This document shows positions 3,564 through 59,704 of a DNA stretch of 64,000 nucleotides, piece by piece. Location of the stretch: assembly GCA_963971425.1 (NCBI GenBank), contig OZ020515.1:11300291-11364290 (forward strand), written 5' to 3'. Each line of letters starts with the position of its first letter. Position 1 is the first letter of the stretch. This stretch comes from Bryoerythrophyllum caledonicum. Its lineage: Eukaryota > Streptophyta > Bryopsida > Pottiales > Pottiaceae. Position numbers and translations under genes: made by a program. The notes under the pieces are model-generated. The model was not told where the DNA came from and ran no database searches. It saw only the letters and a program-made list of their open reading frames with translations.

Positions 3564-4532
3564 TTAATATTTTGTCCACTTGCCTTTGGCAGCTAAAACA
3601 GCTTGGATTCGTCGTGGCATGCTTTTGTACAACCTCCTACACTCCTCTGTTTTTATAGAAGCCCAATACTCCTCATTACCTTCTGACAACTCTAAAATTC
3701 CTTTTGGAGCACTTTCATTCTGGTTAAGACGACGTTTCAGCCTTACCCAAAGATGTTCAATTGGATTTAGGTCAGGAGATTGCGCAGGCCACTTAAGAAC
3801 ATCAAAGTTTTGTGATTTTAGCCATTGGCAAACACTTTTTGCTGTATGTTTGGGATCATTGTCATGCTGAAATATCAAATTCGAAGGATCAAGATCATAT
3901 GCCATCACCGTGTACATTAAATCTCTTTGCAAAATTTCTTTGTACTGATGCTGATCCATTCTTCCTTCAATTCTACAAAATATGCCTGAGCCTTGAAATG
4001 TCATACAACCCCACAACATGACAAAACCACCACCAAACTTTACAGTTTGTTTCACTTCTTTTGAATCAGAAGACCGTTCATTGCGAATCCAACACCAACT
4101 GCGACCATCGGAGCAAAATCAATTTACCTTTGTCTCATCAGAGAAGATGATGTGCTCCCAATCATGAATGGTCCAATGTTCATGGCGCCTAGCAAATTCA
4201 AGTCAATCCTTGATGTGTCTCTGGTTCACTTTTGATCTCACTCCTCCTACACGTAAGACCCTTCTCACCATATCAACACTTTCAGTAACTTGGCATTCTT
4301 CACGTACATGCTGGGTAGCTTATGTTGCAGTTTCAAATCCTCCTGATGTGACAGCTCTAATGCCTATACTCTTTTGAGCATCTGATAATACTTGTGGTCT
4401 ACCACCACTACTAGTAGGAATATCAGACAATCTCTTCCTTCTAAGTCTTGCAACATGACTTTGAGACACCTGCAACTCACTTGCTACATCCCTTGTCGAT
4501 CTACCAGCTTGCAACCAAAATAGAGTTATCAA
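3564..4532 (-). pseudogene. Tc1-family transposase, three in-frame stops
   Basis: The minus-strand frame is about 323 codons, close to the usual Tc1 length of about 340, and stays in one frame throughout. The N-terminal part is a helix-turn-helix domain (RSTRDVASELQVSQSHVARL). The first catalytic Asp lies in the FSDET motif at about 4140, the second in QHDNDPKHTAK, and the Glu in SPDLNPIEHLW. There are 34 residues between the second Asp and the Glu, giving DD34E. Three nonsense codons interrupt it: TAA at 4320-4322, TGA at 4203-4205 and TGA at 4119-4121. All catalytic residues remain visible, so the loss is recent compared with the other transposons in the window. The copy cannot encode a full transposase. 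Confidence 0.95.
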
Positions 4533-5939: not shown

Positions 5940-8225
5940 TCAGGACGATGAAACGCTGGCGACCACAATTGGACTCTGCACAGTGTGTTTCCCGTCCGAC
6001 CATGTTAACGTAGTACTGCCGAATATATCCGGCAACAAGAAATCCTTGAAAGATACGGTCAGAACAAAGCTTTGCTTCTCGTTCAAGTCGGTGAAGGACA
6101 GGATGGGCGGGTGCACTGCTATGGTGATGTTTTCAACTGGGGTCACACTTGCGACATAGGTTGCAGGAGCTGACCCGACGTTGGTGAGGGTTCTGGTGCA
6201 GTTCGAGGGAGTCAAGCTGCCAACCTCCCCTGTGACTATGAAGGAAGGGTAGTTGAAGTCCTGTACGCGAGGAGGCGTAGCAGGGCAAGCAGGGGCGTCC
6301 TCCTCAAATGCGCGGATGATCTGTTCCGGGTACCCCAATGAGCACAGATAGCTGAAGTAGTCGCCGGGACTGAGGTCGTACACCAAGCCGGGATCTGTGG
6401 CCCGCTCGGGTTGCACGAACCCCGAGCCGAAGTCGAAGGGGGTGCCGCTCTCGCCACTCTCCAAGACTGTGATGGTGTCATTGCTGCTGTCTTTGGTGGT
6501 GGCCGTGGTCATCAACGCGGAGCGGATGGCAGCGGGGCTCCACGACGAATGCTCAGCCTTGAGCAGCGCAGCGAGGCCACTCACATGCGGACATGCCATG
6601 CTAGTGCCACTCATCATGGCGAACTGCTTCTCCCTTATACCTGCTGCAAGGATATCCACACCAGGCGCAATCATATCCGGCTTGATCACATTCAGGGGGT
6701 ATCTGATACCGGGTCCTCGCGACGAGAACGATGTAACAGCGGGAGCAGGCTTTCGGGTGAACTGCGTCTTGCCTGGAAGCCGAAGCTGAGCTTGGGGAGC
6801 AGTTGTGGAGTTGATGTACTGTCTGAGGATGATTCCAGCTGCGCCTCCCACTCTAACCGTTGGCAACACATGATCGACTTGCACTAAATTCTCTTCTCCT
6901 CTGGAAGGGTACGTGACCAGGATGACTCCAACACCTCCTGCCTCCAGAACCCCTTCGCCGGTGTTGTCTGCACCAGTGTAACACATGACGATCTTCCCCT
7001 TCACAAGAGCTGGGTCCAGAGAGCTAGGTGCGCAGGCGCTAGCTAAGTCGATCTCTGAGGCATTCAAGGCGGCATCACCTCCAAATACGAGTGGTGTGGT
7101 GCGCGGTAGAGTTTTGGTGTTCAAGCCGGACTGGCCGTGGAGCACGGTCCCATCGCCTAGGACGACGTCAGCTGCGAAGATTCTGTCGGTGGTGGACGCG
7201 CCCACTGTGGTCATCCAGGGCGCCACATTCCCAACTGAGTTCGGTTCAGGACCTTCATTCCCCGCCGAGAACGAAAGGAAGACGCCCTTCTTCATGGCGC
7301 CGTACGTAGCAATGGCCGTCATGTCTGTCCAAAGCTCAGGCCTTGTAAGCTGCGGCGACAGGGGGTCGAAAGTAATACCGAGCGACAAGGAGAGCACATC
7401 TACGCCATCAGCCACTGCTTGATCGATAGCTGCGAGGGTGTCCGAGTCTGCGATGCGTTCTTCCCAAACCACTTTGTAAACTGCAAGGCGGGCCTTTGGC
7501 GCCATGCCGCGCGCAGTGCCGCGTCCCAAGCGAGCGACGCTCGCCCTGTATGACCATCTGCCAGCGGCTGTGGATGCGGTGTGGGTACCATGACCACCTG
7601 AGTCTCTCGGCGAGTTGTACTCTCCCAAATCTTCGCGAATTACTCCACCTTGAGCTATATAGCCTTTGGAGAACGATCGGGCGCCGATGAGCTTCCGGTT
7701 GCAATCTTCTGCGCTGAAGTTAGTACCCGGCTCACACGCCCCTTTCCAGCGTGCTGGGGTGGGCCCGAGGCGCTGGTCTCCGAAACTGAGCCGCTCAGGC
7801 CACACGCCAGAGTCCACCACGCCAATGATGACGTCGTCGCCGTAGTCGCTCTCTGGCCACAAGCGTCCATTGGCCAGCCCCAGAAACTCGGGAGTGTACG
7901 TCGTGTGGGGGACGTGCCGGAGTGTGTCGCTTTGCAGCTGGATCACGTGGGGCGACGACTGCAAGTAAGCCACCTGCTGAGGAGTGAGCAGAGCAGAGAA
8001 TCCGTGGAAGGTGTGGTGGTACACATGGTGAAGGTCAGCCTCCTCGACTTCTCTTTCCAGATTGGCGATGTGGAGCAGTTCCTTGTACCAATCTGCTTTG
8101 ATGGAGATGTCAGTGTGAGACGCGTTCCGCTCCATATGCACGATGTACGCGGACTTGGTTGCAGATCCCAGAATCATCTCCATGCAGAGAACGAGACATA
8201 GTGCAAGTAAAGTGAACTGTGCCAT
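5940..8225 (-). CDS. Plant subtilisin-like serine protease (S8)
   Basis: A secreted subtilase of 761 residues in one uninterrupted exon. The ATG is at 8225-8223 (MAQFTLLALC...); the open frame extends four codons upstream to a TTG that I did not use. Residues 1-21 are a hydrophobic signal peptide. An I9 propeptide inhibitor domain (YIVHME...FHGFSALLT) spans about 26-100. The catalytic domain shows Asp138 (VVDSGVWPE), His212 (GGHGTHTAS), the oxyanion Asn323 (SAGNEGP) and Ser542 (SGTSMACPH). A PA insertion (about 380-475) lies between Asn and Ser, and a C-terminal Fn3-like domain (about 650-755) follows. Length and domain order match plant SBTs, which act in the cell wall or apoplast. Intronless structure is common in this family. 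All catalytic residues are present, so it is probably functional; the substrate cannot be told. Confidence 0.95.
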   Translation of the reverse strand: MAQFTLLALCLVLCMEMILGSATKSAYIVHMERNASHTDISIKADWYKELLHIANLEREVEEADLHHVYHHTFHGFSALLTPQQVAYLQSSPHVIQLQSDTLRHVPHTTYTPEFLGLANGRLWPESDYGDDVIIGVVDSGVWPERLSFGDQRLGPTPARWKGACEPGTNFSAEDCNRKLIGARSFSKGYIAQGGVIREDLGEYNSPRDSGGHGTHTASTAAGRWSYRASVARLGRGTARGMAPKARLAVYKVVWEERIADSDTLAAIDQAVADGVDVLSLSLGITFDPLSPQLTRPELWTDMTAIATYGAMKKGVFLSFSAGNEGPEPNSVGNVAPWMTTVGASTTDRIFAADVVLGDGTVLHGQSGLNTKTLPRTTPLVFGGDAALNASEIDLASACAPSSLDPALVKGKIVMCYTGADNTGEGVLEAGGVGVILVTYPSRGEENLVQVDHVLPTVRVGGAAGIILRQYINSTTAPQAQLRLPGKTQFTRKPAPAVTSFSSRGPGIRYPLNVIKPDMIAPGVDILAAGIREKQFAMMSGTSMACPHVSGLAALLKAEHSSWSPAAIRSALMTTATTKDSSNDTITVLESGESGTPFDFGSGFVQPERATDPGLVYDLSPGDYFSYLCSLGYPEQIIRAFEEDAPACPATPPRVQDFNYPSFIVTGEVGSLTPSNCTRTLTNVGSAPATYVASVTPVENITIAVHPPILSFTDLNEKQSFVLTVSFKDFLLPDIFGSTTLTWSDGKHTVQSPIVVASVSSS

Positions 8226-8970
8226 CGCTGCGATCAAATATCTAGCAAGGTACTGAGTGTTGGTTTTACCTTCTGCTACACCGAGTCTTCTAATACATCG
8301 CGGTTGTAATGCTTCCGTATGACTCTAAACATATATCTGAATGAAGTAGGGGGTGTGCCACTTGATAGCCTATTTTCGGCAGGCACGAGCTCACTGCAAC
8401 ATCCTCGGCCCCTTGCATGGTGTTTTTCAGCACGTTTTCTCTTGGGATCCGCGTTGTGTCGATGATCGGCGGTGTTGCCCTTTCGCACCAAGACTTAGTC
8501 TGCAAGCGCTACCAACGCGCTAACTACAGCAACATGTGCTGAAAGAATCCACTTGGAGGTCACACGGCCATGTTGTAATTAGAATATTTTAATGCCATGG
8601 GCATATCTACATGCCCATATCCACAATAACTTGCCCATATCCACTACTACATGCTTTTTTTACTATTCTTGGCATGCTACACAAATATGGAGTGTCTCCT
8701 TATCAAGACGCCACCTCTGCAGATAACTCACTTACCATGTCGGATGCCATGTCAAATTAGTAGTTACCACCTTTTTGTGGTGTGAATCATCATGCACAAG
8801 CCACTACTACCTTCACCACAACCTCTCCTGGTGGGAAGGGGTCTGAGTCAACTATGGGGAGCCCACAATACACATTATGTGGGTCTAATGAAAAGTCTAA
8901 GCCCTAGTGTCAATATTGTTTTATTTTGGCACATGAATTTCTGGGTCTAACAGTGTCCATAAAAAAAATT
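8226..8970. other. Subtilase upstream region
   Basis: No gene seen. About 8590-8650 has a local repeat of (g)cccatatc(c/t)ac. The probable promoter of the minus-strand subtilase lies here, but no clear TATA or element could be assigned. Confidence 0.4.
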
Positions 8971-9423
8971 CGTACACCAAGCCGGGGTCTGTGGCGCGCT
9001 CGGGTTGCACGAACCCAGACCCGAAGTCTAAAGGGGTGCCACTCGCGCCACTCTCCAAGACTGTGATGGTGTCATTGTTGCTGTCTTTGGTGGTGGCCGT
9101 GGTCATCAACGCGGAGCGGATGGCAGCGGGGCTCCACGACGGATGCGCAACCTTGAGCAGCGCAGCGAGGCCACTCACATGCGGACATGCCATGCTAGTG
9201 CCACTCATCGTGGCGAACTGCTTTTCCCTTATACCTGCTGCAAGGATATCCACACCAGGCGCAATCATATCCGGCTTGATCACATTCAGGGGGTATCTGA
9301 TACCGGGTCCTCGCGCCGAGAAGGATGTAACAGCGGGAGCAGGCTTTCGGGTGAACTGCGTCTTGCCTGGAAACCGAAGCTGAGCTTGGGGAGCAGTTGT
9401 GGAGTTAATGTACTGTCTGAGTA
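8971..9423 (-). pseudogene. Partial duplicate of the subtilase
   Basis: This segment is nearly identical to 6375-6830 of the neighbouring subtilase gene, in the same orientation. It covers roughly residues 468-618, including the catalytic Ser motif SGTSMACPHVSG. The match ends abruptly at both sides: at the 3' side the frame runs into EFFLWTLLDPEIHVPK, and upstream of 9423 it enters unrelated sequence. It lacks the signal peptide, propeptide and the Asp, His and Asn motifs. It cannot make a protease. The retained open frame suggests a recent local duplication or a fragment of a decayed tandem copy. Confidence 0.9.
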
Positions 9424-30580: not shown

Positions 30581-32193
30581 TTATGTTAAATGGAGATAAA
30601 TTAGGCAGTGTTCCCTATCGATGTGGAGTTGTATTATTCTAAACGGAGCGTTTCCCAAATATTGGTAACCATGATGGTGTGTATCCTGCCATTCTTCGTC
30701 CAGTGTTTGGAGTAATGAGACGCCTTTGATATGAAAAGGAGTTTGTTGACGCCGAGTGGCTGACGTGCATTTGACGCCAGGGAGACCTGCATCTGCATCC
30801 ACTCCGGAGGCAGCGACAATGGTGACCGACGCACATCCATAGATCAGGTGCATGTGAGGAATGAAATTCCCCTTGTCGGTTTCATCGTCCTGCCTGATGC
30901 ACAGACAATCAACCCAGAGGTATCTCTCTCCAAGTTCATGCACCAAGTCTATGGCGTTGTCGATGGTGGAAAGTACCATCTCTCCAGTCAACGAGCTTGG
31001 TTCGTAGAATCGGTGCGCGGTAGAATTCTCAAGCTCGGGCATTGTGTTTCCACATTGGCAGAGTGTGTACTTGCCCCAAACATAGCTCAGAGCTGCATAG
31101 CTGACGCCGACCTCATCATTGGCTGCACAATAGTACCGCTTCTCTGCATCCAGGAAACAATCCACGACACACCTCTTCTGCACGTCCACGACGCGGAGCC
31201 AAGGGAGGCGGTCTTCAACGCAAGGCATGCATATGTCGCCATGGTTCTCAACACAGGCCTCCTTCCATCTGCGGAAGAGAAGGGAATTTGCAACTAACGG
31301 CCTGAGACGGCCACCAAATGGTAATTGCTTTGGACAAGTTCTATCCCAGTCAAATAACGACCCGTCGTTGCAAAAGTCTTTGACGTTCACAGGCTGCGGA
31401 TTGCATTTCTGGAACTGCAAGATGAATTTGTAACGACCACCGTCGATAGAAGCCTTGGGAAGCTCGTGCATCACCCACTGTGTAGACCACTACGTCGATG
31501 GCTTGGGAACCGAAAGTGAGACGCAGAAGCGGAGGCTGAACCCCCTCGGATTGCACGAGTGCGCTACGAAACTGAAGAAGGCTACGGAGTTTTGAATATT
31601 AAAATTGTTCTGCTTGAACATGTGGGAGCTCCATTCCCGAAAAGACTCAGCGACCTGTCTGCAAAGAACACATGCCTCTGCTCCGTCTAGGATCTCTCCA
31701 AGACGACGCTCTCTGAAGTGATTAGACGGAGAACCGTCACGACTCTCTTTGAATTTCTGGTACTCGACTTCATAGAGATCTGCATTTCCTCCATGTTTGA
31801 GTTCCTCAAGACGCTCAAATCTAGATTGATACTCAGCTTCGAATCTCCCTTTCTCCTTCATTTTCAAGAAGCGCTCATATTTCTCCCTCAAAGAACGCTC
31901 AAAATCAGATGTCAAATACTCAGCTTCGTATAAATCCTCGCAGGAAGGTTCGGTTTCGTGGAAACCAAGTGCTCCAAACTTGTAAGAGTTGCAGAACTTG
32001 CATAATAGATTAAATGTAGAATCATATAAGCTAGAATCATGACCACAACTCACTCTTAGTATTAGAGAGACATTGTAAGTGCAATGTCCAGACCAAGAAA
32101 CTTGGGTAAAGCAACGTGGACCACATTCAGAAAAGAGACAAGATGTAGCTAGACCATTCAAAGTCTCTTTGCGATTAATCTTACAGGGACATT
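30581..32193 (-). pseudogene. HET-domain protein gene, broken or split
   Basis: Heterokaryon-incompatibility (HET) domain, a family typical of filamentous fungi. The minus frame 31474-30581 has the N-terminal WKEACVENHGDICMPCVED block, then SYAALSYVWGKYTLC, YLWVDCLCIRQDD and IYGCASVTIVAASGVDAD, the core HET motifs in correct order. The upstream frame from 32161 to 31490 has two CxxC pairs (CKFC, CVLC) and a charged helical stretch (about 31750-31930), as fungal HET proteins often have before the domain. Both frames are in phase and separated only by a TAG at 31490-31492. The domain stops after AGLPGV and lacks the family's terminal W-x-R-x-W-T motif. No ATG begins the upstream frame near a consensus start, so a 5' exon may be missing. 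Premature stop, an intron over the TAG, or a sequencing error are all possible. Confidence 0.85.
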
Positions 32194-32629
32194 GATCGTA
32201 TCAGAAATAGTAGAACTGGCTGAGATTACCCACCACTCGAATATCAACTTGCCCACTAAGTTAGAATATGCAAGGACGTTACAAAGTATATGCATACGTC
32301 CTAAGTTTTATTTCTGTAACTGCTCGGAATAATGAAATGGCAGGGAACTGAACCGCACGTACCCAAGAAACAAAAAGATGAAAAGCACACCTTCGACAGT
32401 TCAACGTACCTCCACGAGAGTCTGCGAACAGTCCACCGGTGTTCAATTGACTCATTTTCTGTAGAATTCGCACACTCAGACAATGGCCTCACGCTCCTGA
32501 TTTCGATTGGGGGACAAACCCTAGCTCTTGGTCACAAATTGCCTCCACCGATAAACTCAAATCTCAGACATCTATAAGAACTTTCAACCTAAAAACAACT
32601 TAAAACTTTCAACCTGAAACCCTAAATCC
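32194..32629. other. HET gene upstream region
   Basis: No gene recognised. Any 5' exon of the HET gene should lie here; I could not define one. Confidence 0.4.
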
Positions 32630-49754: not shown

Positions 49755-51235
49755 TCATGGGGTGTCTTGAATATCTGGAAGGGCTTGGTTGTTTTCAATT
49801 TTGCGTTTATGTAGAAGGATGGACATAGCGTGTTGTATGGCAATGATGTTAATATTCTTGAAAGTGTTTGTAATTGTATTGATGGGAATTTTGAAGATAT
49901 CTTCTAGGACTTTTATAGATGGGATAAAGGTGGTGGCGCGAGCGCCGGCTGTGATTACCATAAGGGGGTCCACTTTCCAGCCAAGGGCATTGATGTCATC
50001 TATGAGTGGTTGGTATTTATTGATTTTGTTTTCGATTGTTAAAGGGGAAAATCTATCATTACAATATGTAAATTCAATGAATTGAATGGTATAGTTTTGG
50101 TTTATGTGGTCGGGTGGGGGGTCATTGTATGGGGGGCCTCTAACACATAGTATGTCTGGTTTGAGTCGGGCATTGCAATGGCATCGTTGGGTTTCACATG
50201 TACATGGGAGTAGCCATGGTGGGACCGTGTTTTCTTGTGGATTGTTGTTAAAGGTGCCGGCATTCATGAGGATAAAACATCTAGATTTGCTATGGGAGGT
50301 GATTAATTTGCGGATTTCCCATACGGCTTTGTTATGTCTTTTGACAATTAGGGAGTGTATGTGGTGGTTTTGGCATTTGAGTAGAACATGAAGCCATGTG
50401 TCGGGGTCCGTTGAGGGGCATATGGGACATGTTATGGATGGGAATCTTTCTATTCCAAAGAAGAGTTGTTTTCGGGCGTTTCCCATGTATTGTCCGGTAC
50501 GGAATTTAATAAGGCATGTTATTTGTGAGTCGGTGATGATTGGATTTTTCCAAAAGTTTGTAGAGAGTTCATTGTCAATATTGTTGTTGTTAGTCCACTT
50601 TTCTATGTTAGGGAAGTTATCTGAGATTGTGTCAAGGTTATTATATAGGTCTTGTTTTTGTAGGTATTTATTCAAAAATCTAATCGGGCCTTTATCGGGG
50701 GTGTCTTCTTTGGAGGGCCAATCTTCTTTTTGGAAGTAGTATGGGGTGGCGTGGGCATGTTCGTGTGGGTCTTTGGCATTTTTGTATGATTTTTCCCGGC
50801 CCTCTTTTGCGAGTTTATCCGCTTGTTCGTTACCATCAATATCAGCGTGGGCTCGAACTTTGTGGATAGTTGTGATTTGTCTTCGTTTTAGTATCATTTG
50901 TACCATAGATTTTAGTATTATTTGGTCGGGGTGGCTATTGTGGAGGGTCGGATGTGTAATTTGGGTGTTTAGTAAGTATAGTGCGTTAATGCAGTCTGTA
51001 AAGATGTGTGCTGGTTCATTGTTGTATTTTGTTGTAACAATTTCTAGTGTTTTGTGGATGGCCATGAGTTCTGCTCTAAGGATGTTTTGTAGTCCATGCA
51101 GTCTTTTGGCTAGTTTGATTTCTTTCGAAGGATTATATATACCATAACCGGCTTTTTCTCTGCGCCAATTACCCGGACTGACCTGTTCTGGTGGTTTGAA
51201 AGAGCCATCGGTATAGTAGCTATATGCGGAATCAA
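49755..51235 (-). pseudogene. LINE ORF2 C-terminal part: RNase H and Cys/His tail
   Basis: Minus-strand frame with RNase H type I motifs: YYTDGS (about 51205), ILRAELMAIHKTLEI, HIFTDCINALYLLN and VRAHADIDGNEQADKLAKEG, that is the D-E-D-D active site. The tail has CPICPSTDPDTWLHVLLKC then HNKAVW, a CCHC-like pattern common at LINE ORF2 ends, followed by about 200 further residues. The frame is uninterrupted from about 51235 to the stop, so this is the best-kept part. It is not in the RT frame, so at least one frameshift lies between 51235 and 52057. Confidence 0.88.
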
Positions 51236-53232
51236 ATTTTGGTACAGTGTTAGTTTGGTAGTCCGGGAGGGGTGGAAGTGGGAAAATGTGATCTAATGTG
51301 TTGTTATTGTAGTTTAGTTTTGACCATTTTTTTGCTTTTATTGACTAATGTTTGTACAGGTGTTGGTGGGACTATCTTTGTATATATCCGATTTATGTTA
51401 AGAGTTTTTGCTATGGAGGTGAGTTCGGTAAGTTGGTCTATGGTGCCAAGGGTTTGGTTTTGGTGAACGCATATTATTTGTAATGTGGATGGTTCAATCC
51501 TGGACTTTTTTAGCTCGGGTGGTATAGTAGGTTCTTCATAATAAATTGAGTCTGCTTCAAATATTGCAAGGATGTGGGAGTCTGCAAATGGGCTTGACTG
51601 GGGATTAAAGTTTTGGTACCAATTTTTGTCTGGGGTGATAATGAGTGTAGATGTGTATTGTGGGTCGTTTTTCGCAGCGAGGCGGGCCCAATGTAGTGCT
51701 TGTTGAGTTTTTTCTTCATTGTGGGGGTGAGCTATACCATTCCCGACCCATTTATAGTCAAATGCTTTTCCGAGGGAGCCAAATATTTTGTCTCTTTCAA
51801 AGGGTGAGTAGAATTTTTTTAATTTGGTGGAACATGTGACGGGGGAAGAGAAGTATGATTGTTCAATGTTAAAGGATGATATTAATGAGTCTAGAATAGA
51901 TGTGGGTATTGTGTATTGTGCATTTTTTAGGGGGTTATTTTTTGAGATGCGGTATTTATATCTTTGGTATAGCCAAATTATTTCGGTTTCAAATGGTTGG
52001 GTAATTGGTTCAATGTTTGTAGGGGTTTTTAGTTTTATATTGTATTGGTTCCATAGCTATCGGAGTCTATTAGTGGGGATAGTGTGTAGATGTCGGCCAT
52101 TTGCTTCATATAGATGGGCTTGATTGTTCTCTAGTTTTATTGAGTTCGAGGTTGTCGTAATATCTCTTTCGGGATTACATCCCGTTGTATAGATGTTAAG
52201 GAGTGGGATGATTATAGGTGGAGTTACGGATCTTGAGTCTTGTAGTTGTTCTTGGGGGTGGTGAGCTTTAATGATTTCCGAGTAGAATTTATCTTTGATT
52301 TTTTGATAGTATTGTTTTAGCTTTTCTGTGTTGAATGTGGAGGTATTACAGTCGTGTCTTGGAAAAAGGTGTCTTTGAGCGAGCCATTTGTTGAATGTAT
52401 TGTTGTTGTGTTGCCATTGGCAAAGGTATTTTGTATAGGTATTTTGTATTCTATTGGCATCTTTTTGTTGTATGTGTTTGTGGCTTATGATGTTATGGAT
52501 AGGATATGTGGTGGGGTTTTTGGTGATGTATGTTGGGGGGTGAGGGTGGTATGGGTATGAGGGGTTGGGAGGGTGGATTGGTGGTAGGGTGGTTCTTGGG
52601 AGAATGTTATTGTTGATGGTGATGAATGGGTCTTGTAGTATGTAGGAGTGTGGGTGTATGTTACAAGGGATATTGCATGTAGTTGGGCATGTTGAATGGC
52701 AAAAAAGTTGTTTGGCAACATTTAGTGCATTCTTGATTAGTTTGGATGGGGTGAAGTGGAAGGTTTTGAAGTCCTCGTGATTCATGATGTGTGTGCCGTT
52801 TGGTAGAGTGATTTGTTTTAGTTCAAAGATGTTTTTTGAGAGGAGCTTTTGTAAAAGTTTTTGGGAGAGTTGGGCGTTGAGTGTATTATGGTTGCATGTT
52901 TCTTGCCGCCATATTATTTCTAATGATGTTTGATCTAATAGGAAATTTGGAAGAGTACTTTTAAGGTGAACTTTAGCTTCGTGTTTCAATAAGAAAAATG
53001 TACGGGTTATAGGTGATCTTATACAATCTGTTTTTTGAATTCTGGGTATATTTTTGGCACCACCATATTGAGCAAGAACGTATTGTGTTAGTCCATTATA
53101 TATTTTTCCGAGCCTACCTTTGTCATTTAGAGCATTTTGTAGTTGTTCCCCGATACATCTTAGATAGGCATTTTTTAGGGAGAAAGCTTCAAGTCCAAAT
53201 AGGTTATGTGGGAGTTGGGTTATTGCATTTTA
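51236..53232 (-). pseudogene. LINE ORF2 spacer between RT and RNase H
   Basis: Frame 52989-52057 is in phase with the RT frame (stop TAA at 53230-53232 between them). It contains 310 codons rich in Asn, Thr, His, Ile and Pro with no recognised domain. A TAG at 52057-52059 ends it; translation in the same phase continues for a further stretch of protein-like sequence before the RNase H frame. Around 650 residues separate RT and RNase H, far more than in common LINEs. Confidence 0.6.
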
Positions 53233-54611
53233 CATGCACTTTGGCATACCACAGATGGTTTTTTGTATGGCTATAATTTTTTGGTCAAGTTTTTTAATAG
53301 CTGGCATAGAGTATGGTACTGCGTAAAAGCTATATGCTACCCCTGGGCGTATTACGGTGTCAACCATTTTAATTTTTTGTTTCATGGTGGCCGGACATGT
53401 TGATAGTTCTTTGCATTGTTTAGTGAGTTTTGTTGTTGTAGTGTGGATTTGGATTTTCCATTTTAGAGAGGGGACAAGATTTGTGCCTAGGTAAACATAT
53501 GCTTCGTTTTGGTGTAGTATGGGGATTGGTTGACCGCGGTAGTTGATGTTAGAAGCTTGCATTAGGGCTTTAAATGTGGTTGGATTTAATTTGGATTTAT
53601 TTGGGCATCCTGTAGCCGCGCATTTTGGGACGCCTACGTCCATACCAGTCCATTTACAGTATCTGTCGATTTTATCAATTTGAGTTTGTAATGATTTTAT
53701 TTTGTTAGTTATAGTAGCAAGATCATCGGCGTATGCGGCGGAGTTTATGGTTATTTGTGATGTACCAAAGGTGTATCTATTATTGCCTCGCTCTAGCCAT
53801 CTAAGTAGTGGTTCTAAAAATATGATGAATAGGTATGGACTGAGGGTGTCTCCTTGTATAGTGCCTCTAAGAATGGGGATGGGTTTAGTTTTACCAAAGT
53901 GCTCACCGATGTAGTAAGTAGATGATTGAGAATAGATATTTCCAATGAGTGCAATTGCATCTTTTGGGTATCCGATATCAGTCATTATTGTTAATAATCG
54001 GGCGTGGTCTATAGAGCCAAAGGCGTTTTTGAAGTCAACATATAGATCGTATATGTCTTGATTTGTGAATCGTGCATCTTCTAGTGCGGCTATTATAGTT
54101 TGTATTTGTCTAGAGGTACTTCTCTCTGCTCTAAATCCTTCTTGGCTATCGTGCAGGATTTTAAACTTTTCACCATATGCGGATAATATTGAGGTAAGTG
54201 TACTGGTGTAGAGTTTGTATATTGTATTGGCTAATGCTATTGGTCTATGATTTGGTAATATTGAGGGATCTCCTTTTTTATATAGTAAGATTGTTGCACT
54301 TGTTTTCCATGAGGTTGGTATTTGTTTTTGTTTATAGCAATGAGAGAAAAATAGAAATATTAATTTGTGAAATCTTAGGGGCATGTTTTTGAGTATTGAG
54401 TTTGGTATGCGGTCTGGTCCTGGGGCTTTGTTATTTCCGAGGTTGCGTAGGCATGTATCGTATATGGCTCTGTTGAAATATGTGTGTAATGGAGTTTCCG
54501 GGTCGCCTCGTTTGTCTAGGGTAAAACCATCTAGATCATGCCATGGGTATTGGCGTACTGCACATGTGCATTCGATTGGATGTTGTGGTTGGTAGTTGCA
54601 TGTTGGTACTG
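53233..54611 (-). pseudogene. LINE ORF2 reverse transcriptase
   Basis: Starts in this frame near 54611 after a frameshift from the endonuclease frame. Motifs in order: NNKAPGPDRIPNSIL, ATILLYKKGDPSILPNHRPI, DSQEGFRAERST, LYVDFKNAFGSIDH, GTIQGDTLSPYLFIIFLEPL, and the catalytic AAYADDLA (about 53721-53738), then a thumb-like region. Typical order of a non-LTR RT domain. The frame ends at TAA 53230-53232. Confidence 0.92.
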
Positions 54612-56774
54612 TAGGTCTATTGTTTTTGTCTGTTGTTTGAATATTTCGTTTGCGATGTCTTCTGGACTGGTTAGTATGTTATTATATTGGTCAATGATAG
54701 AATCTAGTGGTGGGGATTCAGAGTTTCTAAAAACTTTTTTATTTATTTTCTTAGGGCTGGTTTCATATAGTTGTCTATATTTTGAGATGGCTTTTTTAAT
54801 ATTGTCTTTTGAGTATTTTGTAGTTATTTTTCATGCTTGTATATTGGCATTTTTTGCGATTAGTGCAATGTCTGTTATCCATGTGTCATGGGGTAGGTTT
54901 GGGGGAGGTGGGACGGGAATTTGGATATGTTGTAGAGTTAGTAGTTCATTACATATGGGATGGTTACGTCATTGTGGGTTATTTTTTACAATTCTAATTG
55001 TTTTACGTATTGTATGGTATGTGGTTAAGTGTTGTTTCCATATTTTTGAGAGTTTTCGGGGTAAATAGCCACCTTGTTGTGCTGTACGGTTTGTCAATTG
55101 TGGTATTGGTTGGGCCATGCAAGTCTGTTCCAATGTGTTAGAGATATTGTTTATAATTGTATCTAGAGTGTGACATGTTTCGTGCCATTGTGTTTGAGAG
55201 AGTTGATTATTATTGTCAAGGATGTTTATAAGAGAGTCAATTGATATGGAGTTTTCTTCGAAGAACTTTGTGTTGAATTTTTCTAATTTATCTTTTGGGA
55301 TGGGGTTAAGTATGCGTTTAGTAGTATTGTTTGCGGCTATGGGTGTACGACTTATTAGTATGTTATTTGGGATGTTGAGTTGTATTGGTGAGTGATCTGA
55401 GTTGAGAATAATGTCTTTGTTTGTTGTGGAAGTGTATTGTGTACTGTTATTTGTATTTATATAAAAGCCATCTATTAGGCTCCAATCATTATAGTTGTAA
55501 CCACCTTGTCTGGAGTATTGTGTATCAGTGTTTATATAGGTGAAGTTAAGGTTTTCTGTGAATTGGCGCCATTGATAGTCTATGGTTTGAGGTGGTGTGT
55601 TATGATTTCCGTTTTGTCTTCCAATTAGTGCTATGTCTCTGTTGAAATCTCCACATAACAGGTAAGTATGATTAGGGTTTTGATTTAGTTGGGATGTGAT
55701 AGTATTTTGTATATCTATAATAAATCTAGTATCTTCGGGGTGAGATGGCATATACATGTGAAAAATTATCCATGGTTGTAATGGTTGGTTAGTAATTCTA
55801 ATTATTTGAAGATAGGGGGATATGTTCATTGGGGTAGGAATTTTTTTGATGTTGCCCGGGAAGGCATATTTTTTGTGTATTAGTGTAAGTAGACCTCCTC
55901 GTCCTGGTGTGTATGGTCTCCGTTGTTGGATACATCTGGTTAGTGCATGCGTGTTATTAAGAACTAGTTTATAGTCTTGGAATATGTTTTGTATGTATTT
56001 GGTAGATTTTGTGGCGGATATTTTTGTTTCTTGAATGACTATAAGGGCCGGTGGTGTTTCTGCATATGTGGCCAAATTTTGTAAGCTGGGGAGAGCGGTG
56101 TTTAGAGATGATGCATTCCATGTGATGATGTTTGTATATTCATTGTTTGTGTTAGTGTTTTGGTTTGGTGGGGGGGGAAAAGAGGGGGGAGGGGGTGGGT
56201 GTGTGTATTCTACTATGGGGTCAAAACATTTTAGTGTTTCATTAATGAAGTTATTAGGGAGGTAGGGGAATTTCTGTTTAATCGTGTTGCTTGTGGGGGG
56301 TGCGGTTTGACTGTGTATAAAGTCGTATAATTCTTTATGTATTGAGTTTCCGTGGTTTATGATATTTAGGTTATCTTTGAGAAATTTTGTATAGGGGTGT
56401 GTGGTGCGAATATGTCTTTCGGGTGGATTTTGTAGGTTGGATAAGGTTTGTAATAATGTGTTAGTCCATGTAGTTATATTCGGGTTTTGTAGATTTAGGA
56501 GATGGTTACATTCGTCTATGTTTGGGTGGGTGGTAATTACTAATGCATATAATATATGTGTTGCTGGATGTGTATTTTTTTGTTGTATATATTGGGCAAT
56601 ATTTGGGTGCGTTATGTTGTGTAGATGATGTAATATGTGTGTGGTTTTGAGAAGGGGTGAAAATGTCTGAGCAATGTGTTTGTATTCCGGTTGTAGTTTT
56701 ATGGTATTTGGTATGAAGTATATTTTGGCGTTTTTCTTATGTGTTGTGGGATGTCTTTTTAGTACATTAGGCAT
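54612..56774 (-). pseudogene. LINE ORF2 AP-type endonuclease region
   Basis: From ATG 56774 (MPNVLKRHPTTHKK). The first about 200 residues are a domain of unknown type, then a Pro run (PPPPPSFPPPP). The endonuclease follows: ITWNASSLN, IVIQETKIS, YLLCGDFNRD (about 55650), LIDGFYIN and SDHSPIQLN, i.e. the Asn, Glu, Asp and SDH catalytic motifs of APE-type LINE endonucleases. Stops TGA at 54969-54971 and 54831-54833 interrupt an otherwise continuing frame, which joins the RT by a frameshift near 54605. All catalytic motifs are intact. Confidence 0.92.
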
Positions 56775-56801
56775 GGGTCCCGGGTTGGTTTCTATATCTC
56801 C
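56775..56801 (-). other. 2A-like ribosome-skipping motif in LINE
   Basis: Minus-strand codons read G-D-I-E-T-N-P-G-P directly before the Met of the endonuclease ORF, preceded in frame by LLLLS. This fits the 2A consensus D-x-E-x-N-P-G-P with the usual hydrophobic lead. At such a motif the ribosome releases the upstream chain after Gly and resumes with Pro. Codon by codon reading from 56801 to 56775 is in the frame of ATG 56774. Upstream the frame is open only to TAA 56976-56978 and contains no ATG in that 58-codon interval. Confidence 0.85.
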
Positions 56802-56975
56802 ACTTAGTAATAATAGGATTTTATAGTGTAGAGGTTTAGGGTGTTGTTTTTGGTTTTTTGGTTTGTGTATAAATTTTTGGTAATATTTTGTTTTTATGTT
56901 CTTGTTTTTAGTACTTGTGTGTGTTTTTGTTTTTGGGATTTGTTGCGATTCTGATGTTTTCTGTGGTTTTGAGTG

Positions 56976-58064
56976 TTATCTTTGTATATGTGTTTTTTAT
57001 AGTGTGTGTATGGGCTTGTTTATAGTTTTTAAGGTGTGTTTTTGTGTGTGTCTTTGTGGTTTTGTGTAAGTGGGGTTGTGTTTGCGATTGTGGATGTGTG
57101 AGTGTGTGTGTATGTACGTGTGTGTGTATGTACGTGTGTGTGTATGTACGTGTGTGTATGTATTATGTGTATTTTTGGTCTTATGTGTATATATTTGGTT
57201 GTGTGGATGTATTTTTGTTTTTGTGTATGTGTGTACATGTGTACTTGTGGTTTTATTTTTTGTGTATTTGTGTGTGTGTGAGTGTGTGGGTGTTTGTGTG
57301 TTTGACTTGATTTTGTGTGTGTGTATGTATGGTGGTATGTATGCAATTTTGATGATTGTTTTTGGTGATTTTGTCTTGGTGATAGTTTGTTTGGTTGTGT
57401 TTTTGGGAGGTGTGTGTAAGAGGTGACATGCAAGGTGGTAAATGTTCTTATAAGTTGGAGGTGTTTGAGGGAGTAGGATTTGCGTGTTGTGTGTGTATGT
57501 ATGGGGTGTGTTTGTGATGTAGAGATGTCGTAAGGATGTACGAGTGTTGAGTGTGTGTATCTTGTATGTTTTTTCCCAAGAGATATTCATACCGTAATGG
57601 TATATGCAATAACAATGTTTATAGATATGTGGGGTGAAACCCCAAAAACAATACATGTGTTCAACGTGAGGTCTCCAGGTCATGCATTTAGTTGTAAGTA
57701 TTTTGTGGTAGTAGTAGAGAATGTGTCTAGAGTAGGAGGTGACTAGTGATGAGGAGGTACATCTTGTGGTAAGGCTAAGATATACTACAACTATAGTAGT
57801 GAAAAGATATGTCATTATTAAGGGCAAGGTAGTGAGAGGCTGAAGCCTTTGGGAGTTTACATCTAGTTGTAGTGGTGTGGGGGGTACTAATATAGTATGT
57901 GTGAGAGTACTAACTAGCATATAGTAGTAACAAGAAGAAAACATACTAGAGGGGATAATAGGAATGTTTGAAGAGAATTGGGGAGTATGGAGGGGAGGGG
58001 TGCTAACCTTGTCCTTCCATGTGGTGCCATATTGGTAATTTCTTCGACTGGGGTCATTGGTCAA
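56976..58064 (-). pseudogene. LINE ORF2 upstream frame / linker, low complexity
   Basis: ATG 58064-58062 overlaps the ORF1 stop as ATGA. The frame is open for 355 codons to TAA 56997-56999. It is in the same phase as the 2A motif and endonuclease; only that TAA and TAA 56976-56978 intervene. The first 200 codons look weakly protein-like; the rest is His/Thr/Lys-rich and produced by (GT)n-like sequence (about 57090-57330). It may be the true ORF2 start, or a chance open frame in G-poor DNA. Confidence 0.45.
57090..57330. repeat. Degenerate (GT/GTAT)n microsatellite
   Basis: Plus strand is almost wholly g and t: repeated gtgtgtgtatgtac and tttgtgtgtg units. It sits inside the LINE linker. Confidence 0.8.
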
Positions 58065-59704
58065 TCCACGTTTGAGTGGTCTTCTAAGGCTGGAGTGTTT
58101 GGTGGCCTCGATCCTGTAATTTGTTGCATAGCCATCAATGCTGAGGTCATTAGCTGCTCCACATTTGATAACTTGGCTTGTAGCTCACTGGTGCGGTTAT
58201 CGGTATAGGCTCTTGTGTCTTTGATGATGTCCTCTCTAAGGGTAGAGAGCTCCTGACGCAGTCTTTTGTTGCCTGCATCTATAATAGAGGTCATTTCTGA
58301 CCTGGTGATGCTCGCGGGAGTGGGGGTAGTTTGGAGAGACTCCACGGTGTTTACAAGGGCTTTGTTGATGTCATTAAAACCCCACTTGTCCAATAATGCG
58401 GTGGCGGGTGGGTCCTCTCCTTCGAGGCTACGGCGGTGGGGAGAAATCTCCACTTGGTGATGCCCTATGGTGAATGTCTTGTGAAGAAATTGGCCGTAGA
58501 TGATAGGGTTAGGGAATTGCACATTGGCACTACCGTTGTGCATTCCTCTCTGCTGCCTGTGGAACCATAGGGAGATGATATTTTTGGCTTCAAAGGTTTG
58601 GTGAATGGCTGCCGTGGTTTCTGCCACGCTCATAAGGATGGGAAGATGTGAGAGGGTGACTGTTAATGCATCCTTCTTGGCTCTATCAGCTGGAGAGAGG
58701 CCTCCAGAACTACTAGCACGCGTTGGCATCACCTCATGTTGTGTGGTAATTTGGTGTAGCTCGAATTTCTTGGCTTGTTGAGGGGTTGGGGCAACAATGA
58801 AGGCGTGTGAATCTTCCTGTACCTTCTGTACATCTATAATTTCGAATTCCAAGTTTCTCGAGAAACTATTTTTCACCACATCTTGGAAGAGGGTGTGGGC
58901 AGTCACACCTTTGAGAGACTCGCTCTTGATTCTCACTGATAAATTCTTCCTCGCTACTGCATGGAAAGTCTTACATACTTTCCCTAAGGAGGCCTGTCCT
59001 ATGGGGTCCAAGTGTAGAATGAAGTATCTAGTGCCACGTAGGAGGGCAATAGCATCAACCTCTGGCCTGAGGAGGTGTAGTTTAATAATTCCTGACCATA
59101 TACCTTTCTACCCCTCTTTTTTGACCCCTTTGCATAGAACGGCCATGGGATCCATTAGGTTGGTGCCTAATAGGATGTGCATGTGTTCGAGTCTAGCTAG
59201 TGCCAGCCTCTTCACCTCATCATGGTACATGGGGTGCGGTGGCAATTCGAAGTGAATTGCCACATGGAAGTCATAGGAGAGTCCGGTGATAGGGTGCGTA
59301 GGGATATCGAAGGGTACCTGTGTAAGGTTGTAGTGTTGGCCTTTGATGTTGTTGTTGCGGATCGATGAATATAATAATTGCAGGATCCTTGGGTAAGCCA
59401 CAGTGGTGCCAAGGGCCTCCTCTGCTTCATCCTTGGGTACTCCACGAGTGATCATGTCTCTGATACTCTCTCCACTGAATAGGGGCTCCTGTCCTACATC
59501 CTTGGCGAGCTTTACCATAGTAGAGAAGCCTAACCAAAAATGAAATGAGAAGAGGTCAGGGATGGAGACTTGAATGGGGGTGGGATAGTTACCTCTAGCT
59601 TTCTTGGGTGGGGTTGGGCCTCCACTTGCCATTGAGGCTAAGTCTTCAGCCTCTGTGATCTTCATGACTCCTGGGTGTGGGTTCTCAGTGTCCATGGCAT
59701 CCAT
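58061..59704 (-). pseudogene. LINE ORF1 protein, one in-frame TAG
   Basis: From ATG 59704 (MDAMDTENPHPGVMK), about 547 codons, ending HSNVD then TGA at 58061-58063. A single TAG at 59108-59110 splits the frame; the continuation KGIWSGIIKLHLLRP is in phase. The N-terminal half contains a conserved-looking block (FDIPTHPITGLSYDFHVAIH). The second half has LGKVCKTFHAVARKN, then an RRM-like region (ALTVTLSHLPILMSV) and a C-terminal coiled coil (about 58250-58090, RLRQELSTLREDIIK to LSNVEQLMTSALM). A coiled coil with an RNA-binding domain is typical for LINE ORF1. Base composition is ordinary here, unlike ORF2. Confidence 0.8.

What the first reader, a model, noticed from the sequence alone, without database searches (positions are those of the whole stretch)
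56775..56801. 2A-like ribosome-skipping motif fused ahead of a plant LINE endonuclease
The minus strand encodes LLLLSGDIETNPGP immediately before MPNVLK of the endonuclease ORF. The last eight residues match the full 2A consensus D-x-E-x-N-P-G-P. 2A-like sequences are known in some trypanosome and animal non-LTR retrotransposons at or near the ORF2 N-terminus. I do not know of a described case in a moss or other land-plant LINE. It would let the element release an N-terminal protein and start EN-RT-RNase H as a separate chain from one frame.
Basis: partly seen in the sequence, partly recalled or inferred. Interest (0 to 1): 0.92.

Follow-up and report, generated by a model that had tools for sequence, protein, structure and literature searches.

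The report
Ribosome-skipping 2A in moss LINE retrotransposons
Jumping genes present in many copies in a moss genome carry, just ahead of their copying enzyme, a short virus-like peptide of the kind that makes ribosomes skip a bond and release two proteins from one message, a trick I found no report of in plant jumping genes.

Summary
The motif is real: window 56801-56775 (minus) reads GDIETNPGP after LLLLS and before MPNVLK. The LINE has ORF1, then ORF2: leader, 2A, endonuclease, RT, PCIF1-like domain, RNase H. The window copy is decayed; two TAA lie just before the 2A. The host genome (437 Mb; a window gene's best named match is the moss Ceratodon) holds 1402 matches to the GDIETNPGP codons, 0 for the reversed pattern. 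Copies chosen by the downstream protein keep D[VI]ExNPGP in 56 of 80. pN/pS over 58 copies is 0.10 in the octet, 0.36 in the hexamer, 0.21 downstream, 1.10 in the linker. In 13 of 24 copies examined the leader is stop-free from ORF1 to 2A, yet its amino acids look unconstrained. Of 55 protein relatives reaching the site, 43 keep the core; one green-alga LINE has a version. The leader frame opens inside the ORF1 end, at -1; three open leaders lack an in-frame ATG. Best reading: ribosomes pass from ORF1 into a dispensable leader and the 2A frees EN-RT. Skipping was not measured. 2A in animal and trypanosome LINEs is known (recalled).

The parts
56775..56801 (-). 2A/StopGo core GDIETNPGP (G + octet DIETNPGP)
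56802..56816 (-). LLLLS ahead of the core; with the G it forms the LLLLSG hexamer
56772..56774 (-). ATG directly after the 2A (GP|MPNVLK)
56817..58184 (-). Leader in the 2A frame, opening inside the ORF1 3' end; broken in this copy by TAA 56999-56997 and TAA 56978-56976; block MTWRPHVEHMY..YGMNIS resembles that of L031 and others, its last ATG at 57590
58061..59704 (-). ORF1, from MDAMDTENPHPG to ALEDHSNVD*; one in-frame TAG at 59110-59108 in this copy
58070..58075 (-). TCAAAC at the ORF1 3' end (frame overlap), kept at nucleotide level in most copies looked at; candidate -1 frameshift site
55596..56126 (-). APE-type endonuclease domain (PF03372)
   Evidence: E 9.9e-06
53533..54270 (-). Reverse transcriptase domain (PF00078)
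   Evidence: E 3.5e-27
51574..52020 (-). PCIF1-like domain (PF12237) between RT and RNase H
   Evidence: E 7.8e-13; in an open copy
50796..51227 (-). RNase H domain (PF00075)
   Evidence: E 1.4e-13
49755..56774 (-). ORF2 body after the 2A; decayed here (TGA 54971, TGA 54833, TAA 53232, TAG 52059 and frame breaks)
   Evidence: one-frame counterpart of 2349 residues (from the G of the core) in another copy

Best explanation
This is a moss LINE family whose ORF2 frame starts with a translated leader ended by an L-rich 2A (StopGo) peptide. Ribosomes enter the ORF2 frame at or near the ORF1 3' end (inferred), translate a leader whose amino acids matter little but whose frame must stay open, and reach a stretch such as YKILLLLSGDIETNPG|P. 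There the Gly-Pro bond is skipped, the upstream chain is released, and translation goes on to make EN-RT-PCIF1-like-RNase H as a separate protein with N-terminal Pro. Shown: the sequence, the one-frame anatomy of the most complete copies, selection on the 2A peptide, the spread among relatives. Inferred: skipping in moss, and how the leader frame is entered.
For: Exact core, and an upstream hexamer LLLLSG that PMC12846837 (sections 10 and 14 read) names as a frequent class; its L-rich motif 6 was active there. 1402 genome matches against 0 for the control. Octet intact in 41 of 60 and 15 of 20 copies picked by the downstream protein. pN/pS gradient 1.10, 0.70, 0.36, 0.10, then 0.21 downstream, over 58 of the 60. 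Twelve copies (11 selected by open frame plus the window): octet pN 0, pS 0.42. Octet intact in 14 of 15 copies with open frame of 500 or more and no stop in the hit against 27 of 45 others, p 0.023. Leader: 13 of 24 copies examined have no 2A-frame stop from ORF1 stop to 2A, against 3-31 in each other frame. Of 119 protein relatives, 55 reach the site and 43 of these have the core exactly. Green alga Nannochloris P0188 has LLLLQQGIEPNPGP ahead of EN.
Against: No translation assay; PMC11512398 (passages) warns that not all core matches are active. 24 of 80 censused copies have a changed or unreadable octet. The split at open frame 600 is not significant (13 of 15 against 28 of 45, p 0.11). Of 9 relatives without Met after the site only 4 keep the core exactly. 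Several long distant relatives with an EN domain lack NPGP (P0143, P0149, P0154, P0168). L031-L041 were chosen by open-frame length or score, and 4 of these 11 (L035, L037, L039, L041) still have a leader stop within 1256 nt. In the 41-codon ORF1 overlap the 2A frame is not conserved as protein.
Confidence: 0.85

Rival explanations
1. The 2A is not translated: ORF2 starts at the ATG directly after it (GP|MPN) by reinitiation, and the motif is a by-product of something at DNA or RNA level.
For: An ATG follows directly in most censused copies; the window copy and L035, L039, L041 have no in-frame ATG between the nearest upstream stop and the 2A; 5 of 9 relatives without that Met have a changed core.
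Against: The octet varies at silent positions (GAC/GAT, CCG/CCA/CCC, GGA/GGC/GGG) and is constrained as protein (pN/pS 0.10). The leader is stop-free in the 2A frame in 13 of 24 copies examined. Four relatives lacking the Met keep the exact core (P0031, P0079, P0083, P0118).
Confidence: 0.08
2. The peptide is conserved as an ordinary N-terminal segment or signal sequence of the ORF2 protein, without skipping, or as a dual-targeting signal as in sea-urchin NLRs.
For: The stretch before the core is hydrophobic (YKILLLLSG in the window); PMC4981915 (passages) shows 2A-like N-terminal signals in sea urchin.
Against: It lies 113-423 codons past the ORF1 end in the 13 open-leader copies, so not at an obvious N-terminus. 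Constraint is tightest in the StopGo octet itself and weaker just downstream (0.10 against 0.21).
Confidence: 0.05
3. Only old copies used it: the motif is a relic that decays neutrally.
For: 24 of 80 censused copies have lost the exact octet.
Against: Groups of copies with equal scores in the endonuclease hit keep long open frames, and the fetched members of one such group, 16 of 16, have the octet; octet pN/pS is 0.10 even in the census.
Confidence: 0.02

Closest known systems
APE-type LINEs of animals and Ingi/L1Tc of trypanosomes with 2A (Odon 2013: only its reference entry was seen, in PMC12846837 and PMC4981915; hosts and position are recalled)
   Same: Non-LTR element with APE endonuclease and a 2A at or near the ORF2 N-terminus (recalled).
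   Different: Plant host; a leader of 113-423 codons running on from the ORF1 3' end; a PCIF1-like domain between RT and RNase H.
StopGo L-rich upstream class LLLLSG, motifs 2 and 6 (PMC12846837, sections 10 and 14 read)
   Same: The window has exactly LLLLSG-DIETNPGP, with G at p11 and D at p12 as in that class.
   Different: p15 is T, where that class prefers S; found in a retrotransposon of a plant, whereas that study reports no evidence of natural use by plant viruses.
Sea-urchin NLR 2A-like signal sequences (PMC4981915, passages)
   Same: A 2A in a cellular frame after a hydrophobic stretch; that peptide also works in N. benthamiana.
   Different: Not at the N-terminus here, and in a mobile element.
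Green-alga LINEs (Nannochloris KSW81_000939 = P0188; Haematococcus, Parachlorella and Pleodorina relatives)
   Same: Related RT; P0188 has a 2A-like core GIEPNPGP ahead of EN.
   Different: p12 is G in P0188; in the six other named algal proteins the pattern scan found no 2A, and some of these may not reach that far.

Membership tests
2A / StopGo sequence | Core (D/G/C/N)(V/I)ExNPGP | tested here: met
   DIETNPGP in the window; 56 of 80 censused copies
2A / StopGo sequence | Known upstream context | tested here: met
   LLLLSG is the name of a published class; hexamer pN/pS 0.36
2A / StopGo sequence | Lies inside one open frame between two translated segments | tested here: met
   Met in 13 of 24 copies examined; not met in the window copy, whose leader has two TAA
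2A / StopGo sequence | Skips the Gly-Pro bond | not testable with these tools
   Needs a translation assay
APE-type non-LTR retrotransposon (LINE) | APE endonuclease and RT in one ORF2 | tested here: met
   PF03372 and PF00078 in one frame of L017; open ORF2 of 2349 residues in L017 with L030
APE-type non-LTR retrotransposon (LINE) | Separate ORF1 upstream in the same element | tested here: met
   L031 ORF1; 18 of 18 ORF1 rows of equal score lie 1284 bases from an ORF2 row. By tblastn no ORF1 was found near L012 and L017
APE-type non-LTR retrotransposon (LINE) | Assignment to a named clade (I, R1, Tad and so on) | not tested
   No named reference LINE set was at hand; the RT part best matches R2 among solved structures, which does not settle it
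-1 programmed frameshifting | ORF2 frame overlaps ORF1 and is reached by -1 | tested here: met
   Frame relation -1 in the 13 open-leader copies of 24 examined, overlap 19-178 nt; of 7 copies with leader stops 4 are -1 and 3 are not; in 4 no ORF1 end was recognised
-1 programmed frameshifting | Slippery heptamer and downstream structure | tested here: inconclusive
   TCAAAC in 15 of 17 (anchored on TYNAAN) and 17 of 20; not a canonical X XXY YYZ; fold z -0.11 in one copy

The most novel reading that the evidence does not exclude
The element uses two recodings in a row. Ribosomes shift -1 at a conserved TCAAAC just before the ORF1 stop, run through a leader that is kept open but free in sequence (in one young subfamily 68 to at least 219 of its residues are glutamine), and the 2A then cuts the chain. 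StopGo would thus do for a plant LINE what a protease does for retroviral Gag-Pol: make ORF1 and EN-RT from one start with no second initiation site. The habit could be old in the green lineage, as one alga carries a version.
Probability: 0.4. Interest if true: 0.87.

Novelty: new variant of a known kind. Interest (0 to 1): 0.76.

Why it matters
StopGo peptides are used as tools in plants, yet the 2026 survey seen here found no evidence of natural use by plant viruses (PMC12846837). A plant genome with over a thousand exact matches to the peptide, in families where it is under protein-level selection, supplies natural plant 2A candidates and a set of natural mutants. It also makes an open LINE question testable: how the second protein is made when no start codon is in sight. 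A leader that seems free in sequence but locked in frame, followed by a tightly kept release peptide, separates the two demands cleanly.

Tried and rejected
Chance match: rejected by the reversed-pattern control. Leader as a conserved functional protein: protein-guided pN/pS of 0.38-0.82 (ORF2 0.12-0.21) hinted at it, but nucleotide alignment shows no clear third-position excess in the leader, so I drop it for the compared subfamilies. The block around YGMNIS shared by several copies and the like N-termini of metagenome P0016, P0022 and P0029 (by eye) speak the other way. Single conserved start ATG: the YGMNIS ATG is shared in one group, but L121, L010 and L028 have no in-frame ATG between ORF1 stop and 2A; of these L010 and L028 have stops 24 and 409 codons into ORF2, while L121 is listed with an open frame of 2567. 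RNA structure after TCAAAC: none in one copy. Relatives in viral contigs: none confirmed. RT clade: not placed. Papers: the listings show no title or abstract start on 2A in a plant or moss LINE; searches list only the best 15, 10 and 15. PMC12338488 (Rao 2025, a scan of viral and cellular proteomes), PMC3708506 (Odon 2013) and PMC3894237 are not held, so prior mention there cannot be excluded.

Full report
Observation. The minus strand at 56801-56775 encodes GDIETNPGP, preceded by LLLLS and followed by ATG (MPNVLK). It sits at the start of ORF2 of a LINE on the minus strand: ORF1 59704-58061, then ORF2 with APE endonuclease, reverse transcriptase, a PCIF1-like domain and RNase H. This copy is decayed: TAA at 56999 and 56978 cut the frame just before the 2A, TAG 59110-59108 lies in ORF1, and four stops plus frame breaks lie in ORF2.

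Host. The window subtilase ORF (5943-8255) best matches, among named proteins, the moss Ceratodon purpureus at 70%; the top hit is an unnamed metagenome protein at 79%. A folate gene in the window best matches chain 7mpy_A, folate synthesis bifunctional protein (that this is the Arabidopsis enzyme is recalled). I take the host to be a moss; its species is not known to me.

Copy number and chance. The own genome has 437,360,962 bases. The pattern for GDIETNPGP with all synonymous codons matches 1402 times, the reversed control 0 times.

Conservation in copies found without the motif. I searched the genome with 200 residues that begin right after the 2A (3988 first-look candidates, 150 scored). 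Leaving out the window, copies fetched before (some of them for their long open frames) and most members of one group of equal-scoring copies, I listed 80 rows in table order and fetched the first 60. D[VI]ExNPGP is intact in 41 of 60. In 2 of 60 no 2A is readable in frame (L048, L100; L100 looks like an out-of-frame 2A), and 17 have one or two replaced or stop residues. L031-L041 and the window, left out of this count, all have the octet. In a second, glutamine-rich subfamily (3848 candidates, 150 scored) 15 of 20 fetched copies are intact. In 78 copies, 25 departures from DIETNPGP were counted outside the x position, one of them the allowed I to V; 10 of the 25 are P to L or G to R. Dropping L048 and L100, pN/pS over 58 copies is 1.10 at -43..-23, 0.70 at -22..-15, 0.36 in the hexamer, 0.10 in the octet and 0.21 in the 20 codons after it. 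Bootstrap ranges (100 resamplings of copies, which ignore relatedness) are 0.995-1.204, 0.60-0.83, 0.27-0.46, 0.064-0.150 and 0.17-0.26. In the second family alone the values are 3.13, 0.52, 0.62, 0.16 and 0.19; in both together 1.38, 0.57, 0.46, 0.08 and 0.28. Octet intactness goes with an open ORF: 14 of 15 against 27 of 45 (p 0.023) at open frame 500 or more without stops in the hit, but 13 of 15 against 28 of 45 (p 0.11) at 600. Twelve copies (L031-L041 and the window) have no replacement in the octet while silent sites differ (pS 0.42).

Anatomy of the most complete copies. L031 belongs to 16 rows of equal score, 13 of which have a 2809-residue open frame. Its ORF1 ends 1256 bases before the 2A; the 2A frame is open from about 120 bases inside ORF1 through leader and 2A into ORF2. 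All 18 ORF1 rows of equal score lie 1284 bases from an ORF2 row. L017 with L030 has 2349 open residues from the G of the core on, although no ORF1 was found by tblastn within 5.5 kb upstream of it. I scanned 24 copies for ORF1 end, frame and leader: 13 have a recognised ORF1 end and no 2A-frame stop from there to the 2A, against 3-31 stops in each other frame; 7 have leader stops (window 2, L011 3, L013 1, L020 7, L025 19, L019 12, L027 21); in 4 (L009, L015, L016, L021) no ORF1 end was recognised. The 13 are not independent: L103, L104, L105 and L114 are one young group, L031 and L034 one subfamily. In 11 of 14 copies tested, none of 300 dinucleotide shuffles of the open stretch was stop-free (L039 2, L041 3, window 15 of 300). 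Caveat: L031-L041 were picked for long open frames or high score, and 4 of them (L035, L037, L039, L041) have a stop in the last 1256 nt before the 2A. The glutamine-rich young group was picked for equal score in the endonuclease: its 16 fetched members (L102-L117) all have the octet and a leader open to the ORF1 overlap or to the fetched edge, while the number of glutamine codons in it runs from 68 to at least 219.

The leader seems free in sequence. In nucleotide alignments of L031, L034, L036, L038 and L032, leader mismatches are spread about evenly over codon positions (C-terminal part, L031-L036: 0.217, 0.268, 0.294; L031-L038: 0.248, 0.274, 0.257), while ORF2 shows 0.13, 0.08, 0.26 (L031-L036) and the octet no first- or second-position change in any of the ten pairs. 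Indels keep the phase except against L032 (194 out-of-phase columns). Protein-guided estimates of 0.38-0.82 are biased towards the frame used. So the frame is held open but the amino acids seem free, as expected of a runway that the 2A discards.

Entry into the frame. In the 13 open-leader copies the 2A frame is -1 to ORF1 and overlaps its end by 19-178 bases; of the 7 with leader stops 4 show the same relation and 3 do not. L121, L010 and L028 have no in-frame ATG between ORF1 stop and 2A; four of the glutamine-rich group have one; six others have 4-7. TCAAAC before the ORF1 stop is kept in 15 of 17 copies (these were anchored on TYNAAN, so only the third positions are a test, and 4 copies without such an end were dropped) and in 17 of 20 further ORF1 ends chosen among the less similar of 150 rows, where most codons further upstream vary. 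In that family the region reads conserved residues in both frames (SNVD and KRGLT). In the 41-codon overlap as a whole the 2A frame is not conserved as protein (dN above dS), so a shift would have to fall near its end. This fits a -1 shift or coupled reinitiation there. The heptamer is not canonical and no downstream structure stood out in one copy. This step is inference.

Beyond this genome. Of 119 protein relatives (42-65% identity), 55 reach past the site: 43 have [DGCN][VI]ExNPGP, 10 a near variant, 2 none (P0048, and P0098 with DIESNFGP). P0016 and P0022 have two such motifs in tandem, the second GDIHPNPGP; p14 H is reported as over 95% active in PMC12846837 section 14. Of 9 relatives without Met after the site, 4 keep the exact core (P0031, P0079, P0083, P0118) and 5 have a changed one (P0064, P0070, P0074, P0098, P0100). 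Among 105 RT relatives are named green algae; Nannochloris P0188 has LLLLQQGIEPNPGP ahead of EN. Of the 101 new proteins scanned, only P0188 has the extended core and P0128 a p14 Q variant; many of the others may not reach that far, but several long ones with an EN domain lack it (P0143, P0149, P0154, P0168).

Literature. PMC12846837 (abstract, sections 10 and 14, passages) names LLLLSG-like hexapeptides among the most frequent upstream sequences, finds L-rich motif 6 active, and reports no evidence of natural use by plant viruses. PMC4981915 and PMC11512398 (passages) say that 2A occurs in non-LTR retrotransposons, works in plant cells, and that a core match needs a suitable upstream context. 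My searches listed no 2A in a plant LINE; Rao 2025 and Odon 2013 could not be read.

Verdict. What is added: the moss host, the scale, the selection gradient, the frame-locked but free leader, and the likely -1 entry.

Noticed in passing
window 51574-52020 (-); L030:450-950: A PCIF1-like domain (PF12237, E 7.8e-13 here, 3.8e-12 in L030) sits between RT and RNase H; 26 of 105 RT relatives, mostly unnamed, list the same Pfam domain and 5 a PHD finger. A scan for NPP[FYW] hit none of those 26, so it may not be an active methyltransferase.
   Followed up: partly
L102-L120: A young subfamily carries long glutamine runs (or a long Asn/His run in L118 and L119) inside the leader; total glutamines in the open stretch run from 68 to at least 219 among 16 copies of equal endonuclease score.
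   Followed up: partly
L019, L012; metagenome P0106: A second, decayed 2A plus ORF2 start lies upstream of the intact one, an internal duplication.
   Followed up: no
L018: ORF1 is fused in frame through a glutamine run to the 2A and ORF2, with the ORF1 C-terminus missing.
   Followed up: no
P0016, P0022: Two 2A-like motifs in tandem, 159 and 140 residues apart, the second with GDIHPNPGP.
   Followed up: partly
window 58075-58061: TCAAACGTGGATTGACC spans the ORF1 stop, is nearly unchanged in 20 further ORF1 ends, and reads conserved residues in two frames.
   Followed up: partly
window 6376-6827 and 8970-9421: A 452-base direct repeat at 96% within two neighbouring subtilase ORFs, the second a fragment.
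   Followed up: no
window 30581-32200 (-): ORFs that look like a HET-domain (heterokaryon incompatibility type) protein, by eye; recalled as present in mosses.
   Followed up: no
window 3564-4118 (-): A fragment that looks like a Tc1/mariner transposase, by eye.
   Followed up: no
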